From Methanoregula formicica SMSP (lineage in GTDB: Archaea; Halobacteriota; Methanomicrobia; Methanomicrobiales; Methanospirillaceae), in NCBI RefSeq assembly GCF_000327485.1, contig NC_019943.1, positions 1,984,001 to 2,048,000 of the forward strand: a stretch of 64,000 bases of DNA, read 5' to 3'. The notes beneath the pieces are model-generated. The model made no database searches. It had not been told where the DNA came from and was given only the letters and a program-made list of their open reading frames with translations. A program made the position numbers and the translations under genes. Of the stretch, positions 51,795 through 64,000 are shown one piece after another (position 1 is the stretch's first letter; each line of letters starts with the position of its first letter).

Positions 51795-54056
51795 ATGAAA
51801 CAGAAAACCCTTGTCATCGGCAGCAGCCTTGCTGTCGGGATAATCGCCGTCATCATCTGTGTCGGCATGGTCTCCGGATCCCCGGCTGAAAAGCCGTTCA
51901 TTTCCGTTGACACGGTGAGCGACAGGAACATCGGCGACCAGTTCGTCATAACAGGGAACACCAGCCTTCCGGCCGGCAGCGAGATAATGATTGAAATCTA
52001 TCCTGCTTCGCTGGACCGCAGCATCGGTATCATCTTCGATCAGGAGACCGGCGTTGCGTCAATGGTGGGAACTGCTGAAACGACAGGAGTGCTAACCGTA
52101 GGAAACAATCCCACCGGCATTGCAGCATGGTCATTTCCGGTCAACACCACGCCATTCGTACGCGGGGATTATAAGGTCGTGGCAACAGCCATCGCGAATG
52201 GGAAACCCGGCGGTCTTTCCGCGGAAACGCAGTTTGTCATGCATAAGAGTGCCGCAGGGACCGGACAGTATATCCGGATCGACCCCATTGCCGATATGAC
52301 AACCGGGAACCTCCTGATCATCACGGGATCGACCGATCTTCCGGAAGGGACCATCCTGATGGTGCGGACGCAGGGATCTGCGGGGGATGCCATGGTCCGC
52401 AGGGGCAGCAATGGCACCAACCAGTTCTTTGTGCCGGTTGATACATCCATCATAAAACCCGGAAAGAAGACGATCTCGATCACCCAGATGACCGGTGATC
52501 CGGCTCAGGGAACCTATCACCCGGGAGATGTCACGGCAACCACGAATTTCACGTTGTCGGGCAATTACCTTGGTTCGGAAACCCCGGTGAAGCCGGCACT
52601 CTCGCAGGACGATTATATCCACCTGGACAAAATCGTCAACCGCTCGGCCGGGAACCTGTTCCTTGTCACCGGGACAACGAGCCTTCCGGTCGGAACGGAG
52701 GTCCTCTGGCAGGTGACACCAACGGCCCTCTCGACTGATCCCAACCAGACCGGGACGTTCTCGGGCATGATGGCGAATTCTCAGGTGACACGGGGCCAGG
52801 GCATGGCGAACCGGGTCACCTTTGCCATGGACAGCTATGCGCTCCAGCCGGCGGAGTACAATGTCTCCGTTTCGATCAGTGCCGGCGATCTCGATGCAGG
52901 GGATTTCCGGCCGGGCGAACTCTCTGCCTCCCGGTTCTTCACCCTGAACGCAGGCGCGGGGACCGGAAATGGTATGGAGTACATCAGCGTTGACCCGGTC
53001 AGCGATAAAAACCAGGGAGACAAGTTCACCATCACCGGTACGACCAGCCTCCCGGCAGGAAAAGAGCTCCAGGTGGAGGTCTACGCCTCATCCTTCGAGA
53101 GCCATATGAGCGATACCGGGGAGTTCAGCGGCGCTGTCGGGGGAGTTGACGTTGTTGCCGGGACCGGGGGGATCAATACCTGGTCCATGGACCTTGACAC
53201 AACGTCATTTGTACCCATGGAATATCTCGTGAACGTATCCGTATTCACGGGAGATGTAAGCAAAGGTGATTTCTCCACGAGCGGCCCGGTCGGCAGGACA
53301 ACCTTCATGCTCCACCCGGCACCAGCAACGTCGGCATCCCCGGGCCCGGCCCGTGCGGTTGCAGGAGGGATCCTTATCGATCCCATCCGTGATACGCCCC
53401 GGGGGTCGCTCCTTGCAGTCTCCGGAAAGACCAATCTCTCAGCCGGTACGGATCTCCTGGTACGAATCGTCCCGGCCTCCATGGCCGGCGGGCAGATGAC
53501 CGGCGATTTCCAGAGAACGGAGAATTCAGCCGTGACAGCCGTGACCAGAGGGACCGGCGAGAATAACCTCTTCTCGGTATCGCTTGACACGCGGCTCCTC
53601 TCCCCTGCTGAACATATCGTTATCATTGCCCCGGCAGAAGGCAGGACAACCGGCACCGGCCCGGAGAACGGAAGTCTCACCAGCTCAGCGATCTTCAACA
53701 TCCTCGCAGCTCCGGCGGGCACCGGTTCCCCCGCCAGTACGCCGGGTATCTTCATCAATCCCATCGGCGACGTTATGGCGGGTGACGGCATGGTGGTCTC
53801 CGGAACCACTAACGTTCCTCCGGGAACGAAGTTCCTTGTCAGCGTCATTCCGGAATCATTGGACGAGGCGACCGTACAGCAGAATATCGCTAACCCGAAA
53901 TTCAGCGCAACGGTATCTGCCGTCAAGGGTTCGACGGATTCAAGTATCTTTTCCGTGAAGGTAGCGACAAAAAACCTCTCACCGGGACAGTACATCCTGT
54001 TTGTCTCCGCTGAGAACTACGAGATCACCGGGTCTGCCCTGTTCAGCGTGAAGTAG
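51795..54056 (+). CDS. DUF3821 repeat surface protein, six repeats
   Basis: 753 residues. An N-terminal hydrophobic segment (LVIGSSLAVGIIAVIICVGM) acts as signal/anchor. Six repeats of about 115-130 residues follow, each opening with ISVDPVSD-like words and then ITGTTSLPAGxE; they start near residues 35, 160, 275, 397, 527 and 655 (for example YISVDPVSDKNQGDKFTITG). Each repeat ends with a YxVxV strand such as PMEYLVNVSVFTGD. The fold looks like a beta sandwich. There is no C-terminal anchor. Family known mainly from Methanomicrobiales; function unknown. First gene of the array. Confidence 0.88.
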   Translation: MKQKTLVIGSSLAVGIIAVIICVGMVSGSPAEKPFISVDTVSDRNIGDQFVITGNTSLPAGSEIMIEIYPASLDRSIGIIFDQETGVASMVGTAETTGVLTVGNNPTGIAAWSFPVNTTPFVRGDYKVVATAIANGKPGGLSAETQFVMHKSAAGTGQYIRIDPIADMTTGNLLIITGSTDLPEGTILMVRTQGSAGDAMVRRGSNGTNQFFVPVDTSIIKPGKKTISITQMTGDPAQGTYHPGDVTATTNFTLSGNYLGSETPVKPALSQDDYIHLDKIVNRSAGNLFLVTGTTSLPVGTEVLWQVTPTALSTDPNQTGTFSGMMANSQVTRGQGMANRVTFAMDSYALQPAEYNVSVSISAGDLDAGDFRPGELSASRFFTLNAGAGTGNGMEYISVDPVSDKNQGDKFTITGTTSLPAGKELQVEVYASSFESHMSDTGEFSGAVGGVDVVAGTGGINTWSMDLDTTSFVPMEYLVNVSVFTGDVSKGDFSTSGPVGRTTFMLHPAPATSASPGPARAVAGGILIDPIRDTPRGSLLAVSGKTNLSAGTDLLVRIVPASMAGGQMTGDFQRTENSAVTAVTRGTGENNLFSVSLDTRLLSPAEHIVIIAPAEGRTTGTGPENGSLTSSAIFNILAAPAGTGSPASTPGIFINPIGDVMAGDGMVVSGTTNVPPGTKFLVSVIPESLDEATVQQNIANPKFSATVSAVKGSTDSSIFSVKVATKNLSPGQYILFVSAENYEITGSALFSVK

Positions 54057-54244
54057 GTCATCATGCATACAACGCGAAGACATCCGTCAATTTTTGCCGG
54101 GTGCAGGAAAACACCGAAAAATCCGCAGCGTGCGGGAACCGATTCATCGAAAAAGTACCTGTTTGTCATAATCCGGGACAGGATCCGGCAGTTGTTCTCT
54201 GCTCCGGGAAAGAAAGATCCCCGGCAAACCAGAAAGGAGAGGTT
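54057..54244. other. 188-base spacer before the first lipoprotein gene of the array
   Basis: No gene seen. The end contains GAAAGGAGAGG as a good Shine-Dalgarno for ATG 54245; no separate TATA box is evident. Confidence 0.4.
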
Positions 54245-54823
54245 ATGAGCCCGGCTCCGAACGCCAGGTCCATTGCCTGCCTTGTGCTGCTTATTGTTAT
54301 CGCACTCATCGCATTCGCCGGATGCACGGATTCCGCGGGCGAACAGGGAGGTCAGGGGACGCCGGCAACAACCGGGGTGAATGATAATCATCATGCCGTG
54401 ACAGAAGCCATCACCGTAAAAACACCGTCAGCGCAGAAAACCGCTCAGCCGATGCCGACACCGGGTTCATCCACCGGTGTCATACGGATCGATGCCATCA
54501 GCGGGAAAACCACCGGTGAAAAATTTACTCTCACGGGAACAACCAGCCTTCCCGAAGAGACAAACATATTTCTGCAGATTATGCCGGACACCGGAACACC
54601 GCCAACGGGTCTCGATCCGGACTCGATGATGAGTGTCGGGGGTAATTACCGGGTAACGAAAGGGGAGGGGACCATGAACCGGATTGCCCTGTCAGTTGAC
54701 CTTGGCCAGCTGATCCCGGGGAACTATGTTGCAATCGTGGGAAAGATGAAAGGGGATCCGGGATCCGCGCCGGTCTTTGAGATAGACAAGGATTACGGGT
54801 ACGCATACTTCACGCTGAAATAA
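54245..54823 (+). CDS. DUF3821 lipoprotein, one repeat
   Basis: 192 residues. Lipobox LIAFAGC (about 29) after a strong hydrophobic leader. A Thr/Pro/Gln linker follows, then one repeat (VIRIDAISGKTTGEKFTLTG; SVDLGQLIPGNYVAIVGKMK) to the end. AAGGAGAGG lies just before ATG 54245. Same strand and spacing as its neighbours. Confidence 0.85.
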   Translation: MSPAPNARSIACLVLLIVIALIAFAGCTDSAGEQGGQGTPATTGVNDNHHAVTEAITVKTPSAQKTAQPMPTPGSSTGVIRIDAISGKTTGEKFTLTGTTSLPEETNIFLQIMPDTGTPPTGLDPDSMMSVGGNYRVTKGEGTMNRIALSVDLGQLIPGNYVAIVGKMKGDPGSAPVFEIDKDYGYAYFTLK

Positions 54824-54875
54824 ACCCGGCAGCGAAAGAATTGCCCGGCATCTCCTCTGTGCAGGAAAACCAGGA

Positions 54876-55829
54876 ATGAGAATGCCAGATGCAGGAAAAA
54901 CCATGACCACACCATCGCGAAGATCTGTCGTACTGGCATCCCTTGTCCTTCTCCTTTTGATTGCAGCCCTCGGAATTTCCGGTTGCACGGATGCTTCCCG
55001 GGATACCGTTTACCCGGCCGGGGCTCCCGGAGAAACACCGCAGGAGAGTACGGCTGCTGCCGGAACCACCGGAACTGCGGCCGGTGTTCCGGTTCACGCA
55101 ACAACGGTTCAGCACACACCTGCACCGGATGCTTCCGCCCCGTACATCACCTTCGATCCCATCAGCGGAAAGAACATTGGCGACCTGCTGGTCTTCTCCG
55201 GCACAACGAACCTGCCGGAGAAGACCGCAGTGTACCTGTACCGGACCTTCGGGAGTACGGGAGAAGAGAAACTGGTCTCCAACCGCGAAGTCTTTGCCGG
55301 ACCGGACGGAACTAACCGGTGGAGGTTTGTTTCCGATTCCAGCGGGTTTGATCCGGGCTTGTATTCCGTGACGGTCACGACCGGAGAAAAAGACGTGAAA
55401 GGATCCGCACAGTTCACCCTGTCGGGGACATCGCTCCGCCCAGAGAGCGTGATATATTATTCCGGGACAAAGAAGTCATCAACCGGCACGCCCGCGATCA
55501 CGGTGAATCCCATCGCAGACCATATGCAGGGCGACATCTTCCTCATCACCGGCACGTCCGGCCTTGAAGAAGGAACGCTCCTGTTGTGCGACATCCATCC
55601 GGTCTACTTTGACGACGCATCAAAGAGACCCGCAACAGTGTATAACGGCCCTTCGGGTACTGCCGGAGACACCATCGTGGTCCGGGGAACGGGAGGGCTC
55701 AACACGTGGTCGTTTGCCCTGGACACCCGTGCGTTCGAGAAGACGGATTATGTCGTGAACATCACAACGGTCAGTGAGGATTTTACGATCCGCGAGATTG
55801 TCGGAAAAGCACAATTCGCCCTCAAGTAA
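54876..55829 (+). CDS. DUF3821 lipoprotein, two repeats
   Basis: Up to 317 residues. ATG 54903 (MTTPSRRSV) is an equally good start. Lipobox AALGISGC. Linker, then two repeats opening at about 84 (YITFDPISGKNIGDLLVFSG) and 205 (AITVNPIADHMQGDIFLITG). The body is predicted extracytoplasmic. Confidence 0.85.
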   Translation: MRMPDAGKTMTTPSRRSVVLASLVLLLLIAALGISGCTDASRDTVYPAGAPGETPQESTAAAGTTGTAAGVPVHATTVQHTPAPDASAPYITFDPISGKNIGDLLVFSGTTNLPEKTAVYLYRTFGSTGEEKLVSNREVFAGPDGTNRWRFVSDSSGFDPGLYSVTVTTGEKDVKGSAQFTLSGTSLRPESVIYYSGTKKSSTGTPAITVNPIADHMQGDIFLITGTSGLEEGTLLLCDIHPVYFDDASKRPATVYNGPSGTAGDTIVVRGTGGLNTWSFALDTRAFEKTDYVVNITTVSEDFTIREIVGKAQFALK

Positions 55830-55844
55830 CAGGAGTCCCAGGGA

Positions 55845-56696
55845 ATGAAACCTGATGTATTTAACATCGTTGCAATAATCGCGATCCTTATCACGGTTCT
55901 TATCTCCGGGTGTACAGGTGAGAATCCCCCAATTACCGGGTCAGGAAGTATGGCCGCAACACAGCAGGTGACCCAGGCTACAATACGCCAGACTATATTA
56001 GTAACTCCCGTACCAACAATGCCCGGCTGCGCCTACCCTCCGCTGAACCCCTGGACGTGGGTGCCGGAATCGTACGAGCCGGTGACAACAACGAAGATTC
56101 CACCTGAACCCGGTGCAATGGTCAGCAAGGCAGACCTTTTCGGTACGCCGTCCCTTAAATGGGAAGAATATGCATATTTCCAGAAGATCCGCAGCCTTCC
56201 CGATTCACAGGGAATATCGAGAATGGAAAAAACCCGAAAGATGCATCAGGGCCGGCCCGCAATCCATGAAAATCATACGTATTTCCTTCTAATAGAAGGC
56301 ATGTCAGAAGAGCTTGCCGATACAACGATGGATGACATGTACTATGATGAGTACGGAAATATGATTTCCATGCACCGTCGGGTTATCAGGAACGGAGAGT
56401 TTCTTGAAGATGCAGACAGACCTCCGGTGAATATGAGCAGGGGGACACCGGACTGTTCCGGAACTGTCTTCGCTCTCCGGTACACGTTCGTAGGGAAGGA
56501 TCCGGTTACCGTCCCGGCAGGGCACTACCCGGACGCAATGAAATATACCCGGAAGGATATCGATGAGTCCTTCCCGGGAAAAGAGACGCTCCTCACGTAC
56601 TGGATTGACCCAGCTGTTCCTGAACCGGTAAAAATTGTGATCGATGATCCCGGGGAAGGATTGCTTTTCACGTATGAATTACGAGGCTGGGGATAG
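55845..56696 (+). CDS. lipoprotein of unknown family in the DUF3821 array
   Basis: 283 residues. Lipobox ITVLISGC (about 23), Thr-rich linker, then a domain not clearly DUF3821: SLKWEEYAYFQKIRSLPDSQ, TMDDMYYDEYGNMISMHRRV, and a C-terminal YWIDPAVPEPVKIVIDDPGE that recalls LolA/DUF-type lipoprotein folds. It lies between DUF3821 members and shares their export type, so it probably works with them. Confidence 0.75.
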   Translation: MKPDVFNIVAIIAILITVLISGCTGENPPITGSGSMAATQQVTQATIRQTILVTPVPTMPGCAYPPLNPWTWVPESYEPVTTTKIPPEPGAMVSKADLFGTPSLKWEEYAYFQKIRSLPDSQGISRMEKTRKMHQGRPAIHENHTYFLLIEGMSEELADTTMDDMYYDEYGNMISMHRRVIRNGEFLEDADRPPVNMSRGTPDCSGTVFALRYTFVGKDPVTVPAGHYPDAMKYTRKDIDESFPGKETLLTYWIDPAVPEPVKIVIDDPGEGLLFTYELRGWG

Positions 56697-56744
56697 GGAA
56701 CGACTTCCTTGGCACGGGACTTTTCCAATATCTATTGACAATGA

Positions 56745-56790
56745 TAAAAATTTTTAACCCGATGCACAAAAAACATTACATGTGATCCGA
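56745..56790 (+). promoter_or_regulatory. second promoter of the array, shares an operator-like word with 51767-51790
   Basis: TTTTTAACCC (56751-56760) fits TATA. ATGCACAA (56762-56769), nine bases, CATGTGAT (56779-56786) repeats the arrangement found before the six-repeat gene with identical spacing. Only the first half of the palindrome is kept. Confidence 0.55.
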
Positions 56791-58041
56791 ATGAGGAAGA
56801 GTTACCTGAAATATGCCGGCATTGTTTCTGCTATCATACTGGCGATCATGTTCGCAGGTATCCTCATGACCGGATCCTTCACTATCTTTCCTGCCGTAAC
56901 TGTCGATCCCATTCCGGACCATGCAGCGGGGGATCTTGTCATCATCACGGGGACAACAAACCTGAAGGAAAATACCCGGCTGGAACTGGAGATCACTTCT
57001 GCGTCTCCCCTTCCCGAAAGAGAATCGCGTGTTGGGGCTACGGACGCATATATCGTCAGGAGCGGCGGGATGACGAATACCTGGTCGGGTGCGCTCGATA
57101 CTTCGGCGATCCCGCCGGGGGAATACCGGGTGAAAGCCTATCCCCTGAATACCGTCAATGTCTCTTACAGCAGGGGGGACCTTCTCGCAACATCCCGCTT
57201 CACGCTGACAAACGCCACACCGGATCCGGACAGGATCACACGACGGGGTGAGCAGCATGAGATTGAGTTCATAAAAATCGATCATATCGGAACCATCTTC
57301 CGCGGAGAGAAGATCCTTGTTACCGGGACAACGAACCTCCCGGCAGAGACTGAATTATTGTATATCGTGATCCCGCGATCCAATACCTCTGTCCTGAAGA
57401 TCGACCCGAAGACCGGAATGCGGGAGGTCCAGCAGGGTTTCACACGATCAGGCCTGACACCGGTCCTGGCAGGAGCGTACGAAGGCAACCACTGGTCGTT
57501 TGCCATCGACACCACGGAGTTCATCCAGGACGAGTACGAGATTATCGTAACAACGGACTCGGTCAGCTCGGACAAGATCGGCAAGGAAGGAACTTTTAGA
57601 ACGACATCCATGACCGTGTTGGAAGCGGATCTCAGTCTTCCACCCTTGCCGGGGCCTGCAGCCGGCTCCTGCCAGATCATCAGGATCGATCCCATCCCTA
57701 ATGTTCCGACCGGCAAGATCTGGACAATAACGGGAACCACAAGCCTGCAGCCCGGAACGGAACTGCTGATGCAGGTCCTTCCCGTTGAATTTGATATTGG
57801 TATAAACCCGGCGACCGGGAATATTTCAGGGGCACTGAACGGGGCGATGGGCACTACGGAGGTGGTTCCGGGATCCGGCGGGAACAACACCTGGTCCCTG
57901 GAGATGGATCCATCCCGGCTCCCACCAAACGAATATCTCGTGAATGTCAGCAACGACCGGATCGATTCCCGGACCTATGAGACCCGGTACGGGAACGCAT
58001 ACTGTTCCCGGCGAATCACCATCACGGGAGACACCGCATGA
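56791..58041 (+). CDS. DUF3821 membrane-anchored protein, three repeats
   Basis: 416 residues from ATG 56791 (GTG 56782 also in frame). N-terminal anchor YAGIVSAIILAIMFAGILMT, then three repeats opening near 35, 160 and 295 (AVTVDPIPDHAAGDLVIITG; FIKIDHIGTIFRGEKILVTG; IIRIDPIPNVPTGKIWTITG). Ends in ATGA overlap with the next gene. Confidence 0.86.
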   Translation: MRKSYLKYAGIVSAIILAIMFAGILMTGSFTIFPAVTVDPIPDHAAGDLVIITGTTNLKENTRLELEITSASPLPERESRVGATDAYIVRSGGMTNTWSGALDTSAIPPGEYRVKAYPLNTVNVSYSRGDLLATSRFTLTNATPDPDRITRRGEQHEIEFIKIDHIGTIFRGEKILVTGTTNLPAETELLYIVIPRSNTSVLKIDPKTGMREVQQGFTRSGLTPVLAGAYEGNHWSFAIDTTEFIQDEYEIIVTTDSVSSDKIGKEGTFRTTSMTVLEADLSLPPLPGPAAGSCQIIRIDPIPNVPTGKIWTITGTTSLQPGTELLMQVLPVEFDIGINPATGNISGALNGAMGTTEVVPGSGGNNTWSLEMDPSRLPPNEYLVNVSNDRIDSRTYETRYGNAYCSRRITITGDTA

Positions 58042-58976
58042 TCAAAAAGAAGTATCTTTTATTTGCCGGGGTCCTGTCGGCAATTATCCTGACCGGCATG
58101 TTCCTTGTCATCATCGTGACCGCATTCTTCCCGTCGCTCTTTCTGCCGGCCATTGCAATCGACCCGGTAACGAACGCAAATATCGACACTCACAACCGGC
58201 TGGTCCTGACGGGCACGACCACCCTGTCCGACATGAACCAGATTCACCTCACTATCGTCCGCAGGTCCCCGGGGCCGGTGCAGGGTGCCGGGTCACCGGC
58301 TACAGAAGTGCGGGGATTTGCCCGGTTGCTGTCAGATACCGGGGAACGAAATCCCTGGAAGGGATATGCCGATATCTCATCGCTGGACCCGGGAGACTAT
58401 CTCATCACGTTTGTGACAGTCACGTATTCGGAAAACTTCACGAAACGGACGGAGAGCGAACCTCTCGCCACGCTCCCGTTCACCCTGGGAGATGAAAGAG
58501 CCGGTCCCGGGAGCCTGCGAAAGAACGTCATTGCAGATATTCCCTTCAAACGGATCAATACACCCAATGCAACAGAATATCAGGGAACGCAGGATTACAT
58601 CACCATCGATACCTTTCCTGAAATTCAGACCGATGATGTCTACACCCTCTCCGGGACAACCAGTCTCCCGCCGGGCGAGGAACTGATGGTCGAGGTCCTG
58701 CCGTATGTTTCCGGCGCGGGAATCGATCTTGTCATCGACCCAAAAAGCCAGTCCCAGATGACCGGGATCTTTTCATCGGTAGTCGGCATGGTGTCCGTTT
58801 CGGACGGGAGTTATGGCCCGGACTACTGGACATTCGAGCTGGAGACTTACCTGCTGGCACCGGGACAGTACATCATGAAGGTCAGTAACAATGAGTATAA
58901 TCAGGCGAACATGACAAAACCTGCCGGTGGACTCTCCTCTTCCCGGGTATTCACCGTAACGGAGCGATCATCATGA
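58038..58976 (+). CDS. DUF3821 membrane-anchored protein, two repeats
   Basis: 312 residues. N-terminal anchor LFAGVLSAIILTGMFLVIIV very like the preceding protein. Two repeats open near 38 (AIAIDPVTNANIDTHNRLVL) and 190 (YITIDTFPEIQTDDVYTLSG). The start overlaps the previous stop and its stop overlaps the next start (ATGA both times), so the three genes are coupled. Confidence 0.86.
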   Translation: MIKKKYLLFAGVLSAIILTGMFLVIIVTAFFPSLFLPAIAIDPVTNANIDTHNRLVLTGTTTLSDMNQIHLTIVRRSPGPVQGAGSPATEVRGFARLLSDTGERNPWKGYADISSLDPGDYLITFVTVTYSENFTKRTESEPLATLPFTLGDERAGPGSLRKNVIADIPFKRINTPNATEYQGTQDYITIDTFPEIQTDDVYTLSGTTSLPPGEELMVEVLPYVSGAGIDLVIDPKSQSQMTGIFSSVVGMVSVSDGSYGPDYWTFELETYLLAPGQYIMKVSNNEYNQANMTKPAGGLSSSRVFTVTERSS

Positions 58977-63141: not shown

Positions 63142-63660
63142 TCAGCGTGTCCTGCCGGCATGTCTCATCAGCGCGAGCAGGCCGGAAAGGATCTCCTTTG
63201 GGGCCGGCGGGTTGCCCGGGATCTTCAGATCGACTGGAACAATCTTCTCTGCCCCGCCGAGCACGGCGTAAGAACCGGCAAAGATCCCGCCGGTGCAGGC
63301 ATCGTCGCCCACGGCCACCACGAACTTCGGCGACGGCATGGCATCGTAGGTCTTTTGTGCCGCTGCCGCCATGTTGTGGGTCACCGCTCCGGTCACCAGG
63401 AGCACGTCCGCATGGCGGGGAGAAGCCACGAACGTGATGCCGAACCGCTCGACATCGTAATACGGATTCGTGAGATTGTTGATCTCGATCTCGGCTGCAT
63501 TGTCGCTCCCCGTATCAAGTTCGCGGATCGCGAGACTCCCGCCAAACACGGCGTCGACCTCGCGCCGGATCTCCCGGCCCAGTGTCTCGATCTCTTCATC
63601 CCGTGCCGGAATGTCAGCTGTTACTTTCCTCTTCAGCAGGCAGGATAGTACGTTCACCAT
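63142..63660 (-). CDS. membrane-bound hydrogenase/complex-I-like small subunit lacking the cluster cysteines
   Basis: 172 residues of the NuoB/MbhJ/EchC family: NNLTNPYYDVERFGITFVAS, DVLLVTGAVTHN, GGIFAGSYAVLGGAEKIVPV. The usual GSCNGCDIEI is DTGSDNAAEIEI (Asp53/Ala56 for the CxxC), GDCA is GDDA (Asp120), and PGCPP is PGNPP (Asn150). All four residues that should hold the proximal 4Fe-4S cluster are thus replaced. Fold regions are well kept, so the protein is under selection. It lies just after the large-subunit gene. Role inferred: structural or non-redox part of an energy-converting complex. Confidence 0.85.
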   Translation of the reverse strand: MVNVLSCLLKRKVTADIPARDEEIETLGREIRREVDAVFGGSLAIRELDTGSDNAAEIEINNLTNPYYDVERFGITFVASPRHADVLLVTGAVTHNMAAAAQKTYDAMPSPKFVVAVGDDACTGGIFAGSYAVLGGAEKIVPVDLKIPGNPPAPKEILSGLLALMRHAGRTR

Positions 63661-63672
63661 TGTTACGTCACC

Positions 63673-64000
63673 TCACAGGTCTGTCCCCGCGTAGGACAGG
63701 TTCAGGCTCTTGTTGATGAGCGGGAAATCCGGAACAATCTCCCCCTGGACTGCATGTTCGATGGCCAGCCAGTTGCAGTACGAGGCGGTCCGTACCTTGT
63801 AGCGTTCGACAACCCCGTTCCGGATCCAGACCCAGCAGAGGCTCTGGCCCCGTGCAGATTCCACGAGGGTGAGAGCATAACCGTCCTTTGCTTCCCATGC
63901 CACCCGTACCGGCCCTTCCGGCAGGGAGTCAAGCAGCCGCTCGATCAGGTCGAGCGAGTCCAGGATCTCGGATGCCCGGACGGTAAACCGGGAGAGCACG
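63673..64000 (-). CDS. hydrogenase/complex-I-like large subunit, C-terminal part, no nickel cysteines
   Basis: About 109 residues to the window edge; the start is outside. KVRTASYCNWLAIEHAVQGE and IVPDFPLINKSLNLSYAGTDL match the end of Mbh/Ech/NuoD-type large subunits. Nickel-binding subunits have DPCxxC at this place; here it reads NLSYAGT. The apparent start at 63999 is just an internal Val codon (GTG). It ends 12 bases before the small subunit starts. Confidence 0.8.
   Translation of the reverse strand, partial: VLSRFTVRASEILDSLDLIERLLDSLPEGPVRVAWEAKDGYALTLVESARGQSLCWVWIRNGVVERYKVRTASYCNWLAIEHAVQGEIVPDFPLINKSLNLSYAGTDL

What the first reader, a model, noticed from the sequence alone, without database searches (positions are those of the whole stretch)
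63142..64000. Hydrogenase-like module with the metal ligands replaced
Seen: the small subunit keeps its NuoB/MbhJ fold motifs, but all four cluster positions are Asp53, Ala56, Asp120 and Asn150. The large subunit ends NLSYAGTDL where hydrogenases have DPCxxCT. Known: related complexes (complex I, Mbx/Mbs) lost nickel ligands but normally keep the proximal 4Fe-4S cluster. Losing both would leave no redox path at this site. Inference: this is a repurposed energy-converting complex, or a pseudo-catalytic core of an ion pump.
Basis: partly seen in the sequence, partly recalled or inferred. Interest (0 to 1): 0.82.

Follow-up and report, generated by a model that had tools for sequence, protein, structure and literature searches.

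The report
Hydrogenase-like membrane complex without metal sites
This methanogen carries a six-part membrane complex built like a hydrogen-making enzyme, but both of its metal sites have been replaced by a fixed set of mostly acidic amino acids, so it probably moves ions without any electron transfer; many archaea and some bacteria have the same version.

Summary
The small subunit (63142-63660, minus strand) has Asp53, Ala56, Asp120 and Asn150 where E. coli HycG and two other hydrogenase-type proteins of the same genome have four cysteines. The large subunit lacks all four nickel-iron cysteines. The genes are the last two of a six-gene hydrogenase-4-type operon, B-C-E-F-G-I, that runs out of the window. 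This is an Ehr complex (energy-converting hydrogenase-related), a group already noted in 2009 for Methanospirillum and Methanosarcina as lacking nickel ligands. What I did not find in the papers I could search is the second loss: a class of 65 among 112 distinct small subunits (Methanomicrobiales, Methanosarcina, Altiarchaeota, Bathyarchaeota, Dehalococcoidia and others) has none of the four cluster cysteines, with Asp53 in 65/65, Asp/Glu120 in 65/65 and Asn150 in 64/65. Glu237, Asn241, Thr490 and Arg212 of the large subunit are fixed with them. dN/dS is 0.03-0.19 and ion-channel residues are intact, so it is not decaying. Six archaeal relatives that keep the cluster also carry a ferredoxin-like subunit that this class lacks. 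Best reading: a redox-silent ion-translocating complex. In the window's order a carbonic anhydrase gene lies beside it in 15 of 29 testable genomes. Function is untested.

The parts
63142..63660 (-). small subunit (HyfI/NuoB-like, 172 aa), last gene of the operon
   Evidence: AlphaFold2 pLDDT 92.5; fold of MbhJ 6cfw_J, rmsd 1.5-1.9 A over 137 residues or columns
63502..63504 (-). codon of Asp53, in place of the first cluster cysteine
   Evidence: D in 65 of 65 distinct members of this class
63493..63495 (-). codon of Ala56, in place of the second cluster cysteine
   Evidence: A 25, T 34, P 6 of 65
63301..63303 (-). codon of Asp120, in place of the third cluster cysteine
   Evidence: D 61, E 4 of 65
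63211..63213 (-). codon of Asn150, in place of the fourth cluster cysteine
   Evidence: N 64, D 1 of 65
63673..64000 (-). C-terminal 108 aa of the large subunit (HyfG/NuoC-NuoD-like, 527 aa in all; the rest lies outside the window, L005:4001-5256)
   Evidence: the model made is of the orthologue in L068 (89% identical): pLDDT 86.1, closest to HycE 7z0s_E, TM 0.85 at rmsd 7.9
63676..63702 (-). C-terminal motif NLSYAGTDL in place of DPCxxCT; the protein ends here

Best explanation
A hydrogenase-4-type Ehr complex (subunits B, C, E, F, G, I) whose nickel-iron site and proximal [4Fe-4S] site have both been converted into a conserved polar, mostly acidic set of residues. SHOWN by sequence: both sets of ligands are lost; the cysteines that recur in the six subunits are scattered single positions; no ferredoxin-type gene lies between G and I; purifying selection acts on all six genes; charged channel residues are retained in both antiporter-like subunits (B, F) and in the NuoH- and HyfE-like subunits (C, E). 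INFERRED: the residues form one pocket, and the complex works as a redox-silent ion-translocating machine. The membrane arm carries H+ and/or Na+/K+, and the G/I arm acts through the charged loops of subunit C as a non-redox ligand- or cation-sensing (or new catalytic) module that gates or drives transport by conformational change, as the quinone/NiFe module does in complex I and Mbh.
For: Distinct sequences: D53 65/65, D/E120 65/65, N150 64/65; large subunit E237 63/63, N241 62/63, T490 62/62, R212 63/63, all different in most or all relatives of the other classes. dN/dS 0.03-0.19 in 9 pairs x 6 genes (one B gene compared in part). Channel residues, rows with repeats: B E143 92/93, K219 92/93, K347 93/93, E402 92/93; F E135 95/95, K222 94/95, K341 95/95; C E195, D202, E209, E215 91/91 each; E K72 and E167 83/83. 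Archaeal loci that keep four cysteines have a two-motif ferredoxin between G and I, 6 of 6 (in L149 in one frame with I; Pfam run on L152 only); 0 of 68 loci of this class have one there. Predicted folds intact. Carbonic anhydrase beside the operon in 15 of 29 genomes.
Against: Transport is not tested here. The pocket is inferred from alignment; the subunits were modelled apart and no coordinates were available. In the large-subunit model residues 169-211 and the last four have pLDDT under 50. Loss of a neighbouring ferredoxin does not track the cluster in bacteria: 22 of 23 bacterial four-cysteine loci also show no such ORF. F420-dependent formate dehydrogenase genes lie near the operon in six genomes (also PMC11346949), which would suit a redox role. 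No energy source for transport is identified.
Confidence: 0.5

Rival explanations
1. It is still an electron-transfer complex, fed by a soluble partner such as F420-dependent formate dehydrogenase or ferredoxin, with a cofactor (flavin, F420, a substrate) that sits in the remodelled cavity without cysteine ligands.
For: FdhA- and FdhB-like genes flank the operon in G043 and G066, an FdhB-like gene is near it in G182, G146, G154 and G177. PMC11346949 (passages read) calls hyfBCEFGI of Methanospirillum a putative formate-dependent hydrogenase inside a formate/Hdr/Fmd gene cluster. Authors on other Ehr complexes propose an FDH-Ehr chain (PMC6349859, passages).
Against: No cluster ligands in G or I, no ferredoxin-type gene between G and I in 68 loci, no flavin domain among the Pfam and NCBIfam matches of the six subunits; no FdhA/FdhB hit at the locus in genomes of the window's genus.
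Confidence: 0.2
2. The acidic residues hold a metal: an oxygen-ligated iron-sulphur cluster or a mononuclear ion (Zn, Fe, Mg, Ca) that does redox or acid-base chemistry.
For: D53, D119, D/E120 and N150 with D236 and E237 of the large subunit are nearly invariant in the class, at or beside positions that hold metals in hydrogenases.
Against: The second ligand position is A, T or P, and I know of no [4Fe-4S] cluster without any sulphur ligand from the protein. A redox-inert cation would be compatible with the best explanation.
Confidence: 0.15
3. The complex is an assembly or regulatory partner (pseudoenzyme) of another complex and moves no ions itself.
For: The window's genome also has two group-4 operons with intact cysteines.
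Against: The whole membrane arm with its channel residues is kept. The six-gene unit also occurs in unrelated bacteria and archaea with varying neighbours in the loci listed.
Confidence: 0.1
4. A decaying pseudogene operon or a sequencing artefact.
For: None found.
Against: dN/dS 0.03-0.19; the same residues in 65 distinct sequences from many phyla; open frames throughout the own operon.
Confidence: 0.02

Closest known systems
[quoted passage not shown]
   Same: Group-4 hydrogenase-like subunits with antiporter-like membrane subunits; large subunit without the nickel-iron cysteines (PMC2686161, PMC6349859, PMC10284858, PMC7304191, PMC10432482: passages read).
   Different: Small subunit also without any proximal-cluster cysteine. 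The passages I read speak only of the NiFe or large-subunit ligands. The Pseudomonadota loci and six archaeal loci here keep all four cluster cysteines.
Hydrogenase 4 / formate hydrogenlyase of E. coli (Hyf, Hyc)
   Same: Closest solved relatives by sequence: HycG (E 5e-38) and HycE (E 4e-77); gene order B-C-E-F-G-I as in hyf.
   Different: No HyfA, D, H or J; all eight metal-ligand cysteines absent; E. coli HyfG runs 32 residues further at its end.
Complex I / Mbs-type complexes
   Same: NuoB and NuoD folds without a nickel-iron site.
   Different: These keep the proximal cluster (recalled); here it is lost. Tyr87 of T. thermophilus Nqo4, the quinone-site tyrosine (role recalled), falls on Gly235 by my count in the alignment.
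DAB bicarbonate pump and Mrp antiporters
   Same: Non-redox members of the same membrane-protein superfamily; DAB pairs it with a carbonic-anhydrase-like protein (recalled).
   Different: Neither has NuoB/NuoD-like subunits (recalled); here a separate beta-carbonic anhydrase gene lies nearby, seen only in the window's order among the stretches examined.

Membership tests
[quoted passage not shown]
   PRK08667 and PRK08676 over cut-off
Ehr complexes | Large subunit lacks the CxxC nickel-iron ligands | tested here: met
   S234, E237, S521, G524
Ehr complexes | Falls apart from true hydrogenases in a tree | tested here: met
   77 relatives form one group (support 100, quick tree) against E. coli HyfI/G and two own paralogues; that tree held one row with a wrong large subunit (L133). 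The tree without it was used for the AU test and not printed. No published Ehr sequence was labelled in the set, apart from the operon's likely identity with Pmh
[NiFe] group-4 hydrogenase | Two CxxC pairs binding NiFe | tested here: not met
[NiFe] group-4 hydrogenase | Proximal [4Fe-4S] cysteines in the small subunit | tested here: not met
[NiFe] group-4 hydrogenase | C-terminal tail removed during nickel insertion | tested here: inconclusive
   no residue beyond the motif here, 32 in E. coli HyfG and 33 in one own paralogue, but the other own paralogue, with all its cysteines, has none either
Complex I / F420H2 dehydrogenase | Cluster N2 ligands in NuoB | tested here: not met
Mbh/Mbs (Mrp-containing) | Mrp-type gene set beside MbhJ/L | tested here: not met
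   six genes of Hyf type
Ion-translocating complex | Conserved charged channel residues | tested here: met
   their roles are recalled from complex I work
Ion-translocating complex | Measured ion flux | not testable with these tools
   needs purified complex

The most novel reading that the evidence does not exclude
A non-redox branch of the complex I superfamily in which the NuoB/NuoD arm has become a binding or catalytic site for CO2/bicarbonate (or formate), coupling CO2/HCO3-/H+ chemistry, with a neighbouring beta-carbonic anhydrase in Methanomicrobiales, to H+ or Na+ movement through the antiporter arm: a DAB-like pump built on a hydrogenase core.
Probability: 0.13. Interest if true: 0.88.

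Novelty: new variant of a known kind. Interest (0 to 1): 0.6.

Why it matters
In complex I and its relatives, energy is thought to pass from a redox reaction beside the NuoB cluster into the membrane arm. A widely conserved member that kept the arm and lost every known redox site would show that the same machine can be run, or gated, by something else. It offers a natural separation-of-function case for asking how the coupling works. It also bears on genome annotation: hyfBCEFGI of Methanospirillum is labelled in print as an H2-evolving [NiFe]-hydrogenase (PMC11346949, figure legend), which these sequences do not support.

Tried and rejected
Pseudogene or artefact: rejected. Misalignment, with Cys122 as a shifted third ligand: C122 is in 65/65 rows of this class but also in 18 of 34 four-cysteine rows next to the true ligand, and is I or V in class 2, so it does not replace the ligand. 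Mbh/Mrp complex: rejected by gene content. One or two losses of the cluster: in the tree class 2 (Patescibacteria and Cryobacterium) and class 3 (this one) are separate, but holding all of them together is not rejected (AU p 0.31), so undecided; convergence on Asp is possible, not shown. General carbonic-anhydrase link: tblastn with two beta-type queries over the stretches held hit only loci of the window's order; other carbonic anhydrase classes were not searched. A CxDxR-bearing gene beside one Magasanikbacteria locus has no homologue in the other loci. Redox-stress genes upstream (Dps-like, glutaredoxin, FTR, thioredoxin-like): present only in part of the window's genus, and in part in a sister genus. 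Absence of a C-terminal tail as an argument against hydrogenase: dropped, because one intact own paralogue has none either. Papers without a relevant passage: PMC3578206, PMC10787695 and PMC11087674. In search 16 the ten papers listed were on health records.

Rows dropped: L133 from the second tree and from large-subunit counts (a membrane subunit was picked up as G); the L079 large subunit reads into another frame at its end and is the one odd row at position 521; large fragments under 300 aa (L061, L099, L103) and loci without a G hit (L095, L108, L115, L121, L147) were not in large-subunit counts. The 123 locus rows contain repeats, so final counts use 112 distinct small and 105 distinct large subunits. 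Searches count rows before removal of repeats. Large-subunit numbers printed are 115 too high because a wrong start was used, corrected. The four-cysteine class includes two Aquificota loci (L108, L133) whose large subunit was not checked and which may be true hydrogenases.

Full report
WHAT IS THERE. The window is bases 1984001-2048000 of a single-contig 2,820,858-base genome, by length Methanoregula formicica (recalled). The finding sits at its right edge; the genome continues, and I read on (L005; window position = L005 position + 60000). On the minus strand six genes overlap or nearly touch: B (L005 10292-8358), C (8370-7420), E (7423-6731), F (6734-5253), G (5256-3673) and I (3660-3142). 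B and F score over the cut-off of NCBI's 'hydrogenase membrane subunit' families PRK08667 and PRK08676. C is NuoH-like, E weakly like hydrogenase-4 HyfE, G a fused NuoC-NuoD-like large subunit and I NuoB-like. This is the gene order of E. coli hyf without hyfA, D and H.

THE OBSERVATION. Against HycG of solved formate hydrogenlyase the four cluster cysteines become D53, A56, D120 and N150. E. coli HyfI and two other NuoB-like proteins of the same genome, from operons that I read as Ech-like and Mbh-like, are CCCC (ORFs). In the large subunit the four nickel-iron cysteines become S234, E237, S521 and G524, and the protein stops right after the second motif. E. coli HyfG has 32 more residues and one own paralogue 33, but the other own paralogue has none, so the missing tail proves nothing.

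NOT DECAY. In the order, 35 of 199 genomes have an orthologue at E below 1e-60; the next matches, near 1e-34, are of the level of the ordinary paralogues. Among the 31 small-subunit rows first aligned (the own protein plus loci of 30 other genomes), D53, N54, E57, D119, C122 and N150 are invariant. dN/dS (Nei-Gojobori) over nine pairs and six genes is 0.03-0.19.

HOW WIDE, AND THE STEPS OF LOSS. None of the large subunits readable at these positions has the nickel-iron set; one (L150 or L151) has a single Cys, at 234. The small subunits fall into three classes. Class 1: 34 keep CCCC: 26 Pseudomonadota, six archaeal loci and two Aquificota. Class 2: 13, from Patescibacteria-type MAGs (three titled only 'bacterium') and one Cryobacterium: TCDD 6, DCDD 4, DCDN, DTDD and SEGD 1 each, so two of these also lack all four cysteines; in the 11 with both genes placed, G lies after I, as in I-B-C-E-F-G. 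Class 3: 65, to which this window belongs, D-A/T/P-D/E-N (one ends in D), from Methanomicrobiales, Methanosarcina, Altiarchaeota, Bathyarchaeota, Thermoplasmata, Woesearchaeota and Dehalococcoidia records. In class 3 the large subunit changed in step: E237 63/63 (S, T or N elsewhere), N241 62/63 (H or Y elsewhere), T490 62/62 (D elsewhere), S276 63/63 (N elsewhere), R212 63/63 (K in 38 of 42 others). Tree: the relatives form one group against hydrogenases (which held one faulty row, L133). Whether classes 2 and 3 lost the cluster once or twice is open (AU p 0.31).

In the phylum-level scan, 36 of 392 genomes have a match above 200 bits. I read the small subunit in 26 of these 36: 21 are class 3 and 5 are class 1. 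Ten (G117, G438, G472, G492, G458, G482, G392, G384, G388, G484) were not read.

WHAT WENT WITH THE CLUSTER. In the archaeal class-1 loci a ferredoxin with two CxxCxxCxxxC motifs lies between G and I, 6 of 6 (L135, L149, L152-L155; in L149 in the same open frame as I; Pfam confirmed it for L152, the one submitted). No class-3 locus (0 of 68 over 9 kb, repeats included, ORFs of 80 aa or more) has one there. Any ORF with that motif occurs in 8 of 68 class-3 loci (seven FdhB-like, one other), 0 of 11 class-2 loci and 7 of 29 class-1 loci. Bacterial class-1 loci mostly lack an adjacent ferredoxin too (1 of 23 has such an ORF), so the correlation holds for archaea only. Cysteine columns that recur in classes 2 and 3 are scattered single positions in B, G and I.

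WHAT WAS KEPT. The charged residues that line the ion paths of complex I-like antiporter subunits (roles recalled) are conserved: B E143, K219, K347, E402; F E135, K222, K341; C E195, R198, D202, E209, E215; E K72, E167 (counts; class 2 is thinly represented for E). The small-subunit model (pLDDT 92.5) has the MbhJ/NuoB fold (Z 20.3 to 6cfw_J, 1.5 A over 137 residues). The large-subunit model, made for the L068 orthologue (pLDDT 86.1), is closest to HycE (TM 0.85, rmsd 7.9), with residues 169-211 and the last four uncertain.

NEIGHBOURS. In the window's order a beta-carbonic anhydrase (PF00484 for L164) lies within about 1.3 kb of the operon in 15 of 29 genomes with enough flank: divergent upstream in 8 (seven of the window's genus, one of a sister genus; in G109 only part of the gene aligned) and in 2 of the Methanospirillum-type genus, same strand upstream in 3 of that genus, convergent downstream in 2. 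Six of 35 genomes had too little flank upstream and were left out; two of the 29 had under 1.6 kb downstream. 175 of 199 genomes of the order have this gene, most a single copy, so repeated adjacency in different arrangements is unlikely to be chance, although shared descent inflates the count. In the window's own genome the single copy is about 200 kb away. PMC11346949 (passages) independently shows hyfBCEFGI, carbonic anhydrase, formate dehydrogenases and heterodisulphide reductase in one Methanospirillum cluster. Beta-type queries hit nothing in the stretches held from outside the order. FdhA/FdhB-like genes lie near the operon in six genomes.

MECHANISM. Shown: both redox sites are gone, the replacement set is fixed, the ion path is kept. 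Inferred: the complex moves ions without redox chemistry, with the G/I arm as gate or non-redox engine. The acidic residues could bind a cation, or CO2/bicarbonate/formate given the neighbours in Methanomicrobiales; that last step is a guess. Confidence 0.5 for redox-silent transport.

WHAT IS KNOWN. Anderson et al. 2009 (PMC2686161, passages) already noted that the large subunits of the M. hungatei operon Mhun_1817-1822 ('Pmh') and its Methanosarcina relatives appear to lack the nickel-binding cysteines. Later papers group such complexes as Ehr (PMC6349859, PMC10284858, PMC7304191, PMC10432482; passages). None of the passages I read mentions the small-subunit ligands, and the listings of searches showed me no paper that does. 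Marreiros et al. 2013, which I recall as central, is not held; Coppi 2005 was not looked up; so priority is not certain. Membership: Ehr, yes; hydrogenase, no. Novelty: a new variant of a known kind.

Noticed in passing
L005:10688-12606 (genome 2054688-2056606), beyond the window: Upstream of the operon lie a thioredoxin-like protein (my reading; no Pfam match), a ferredoxin-thioredoxin-reductase-like protein with a rubredoxin domain, a glutaredoxin and a Dps/ferritin-like protein; the same run is conserved beside the operon in part of the genus.
   Followed up: partly
L164, L165, L169, L172, L173, L175, L176, L177, L180, L182, L184, L185, L186 (upstream of gene B): A GNAT-type acetyltransferase (Pfam run on L164 only) is the gene in front of B in 13 of the 35 genomes, not in the window's genome.
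   Followed up: partly
L082:14290-19313 (Altiarchaeales MAG nzgw1): A second copy of membrane genes B-C-E-F follows the complete operon without G or I behind it on the stretch read; another G/I-like pair exists elsewhere in that genome.
   Followed up: partly
L150/L151 (G230, G237): In these two diverged members the Ser at large-subunit position 234 is Gly in one and Cys in the other.
   Followed up: no
window 51795-58976: A run of secreted or lipoprotein-like ORFs with a repeated domain containing 'GTTSLPxG'-like motifs, by eye.
   Followed up: no
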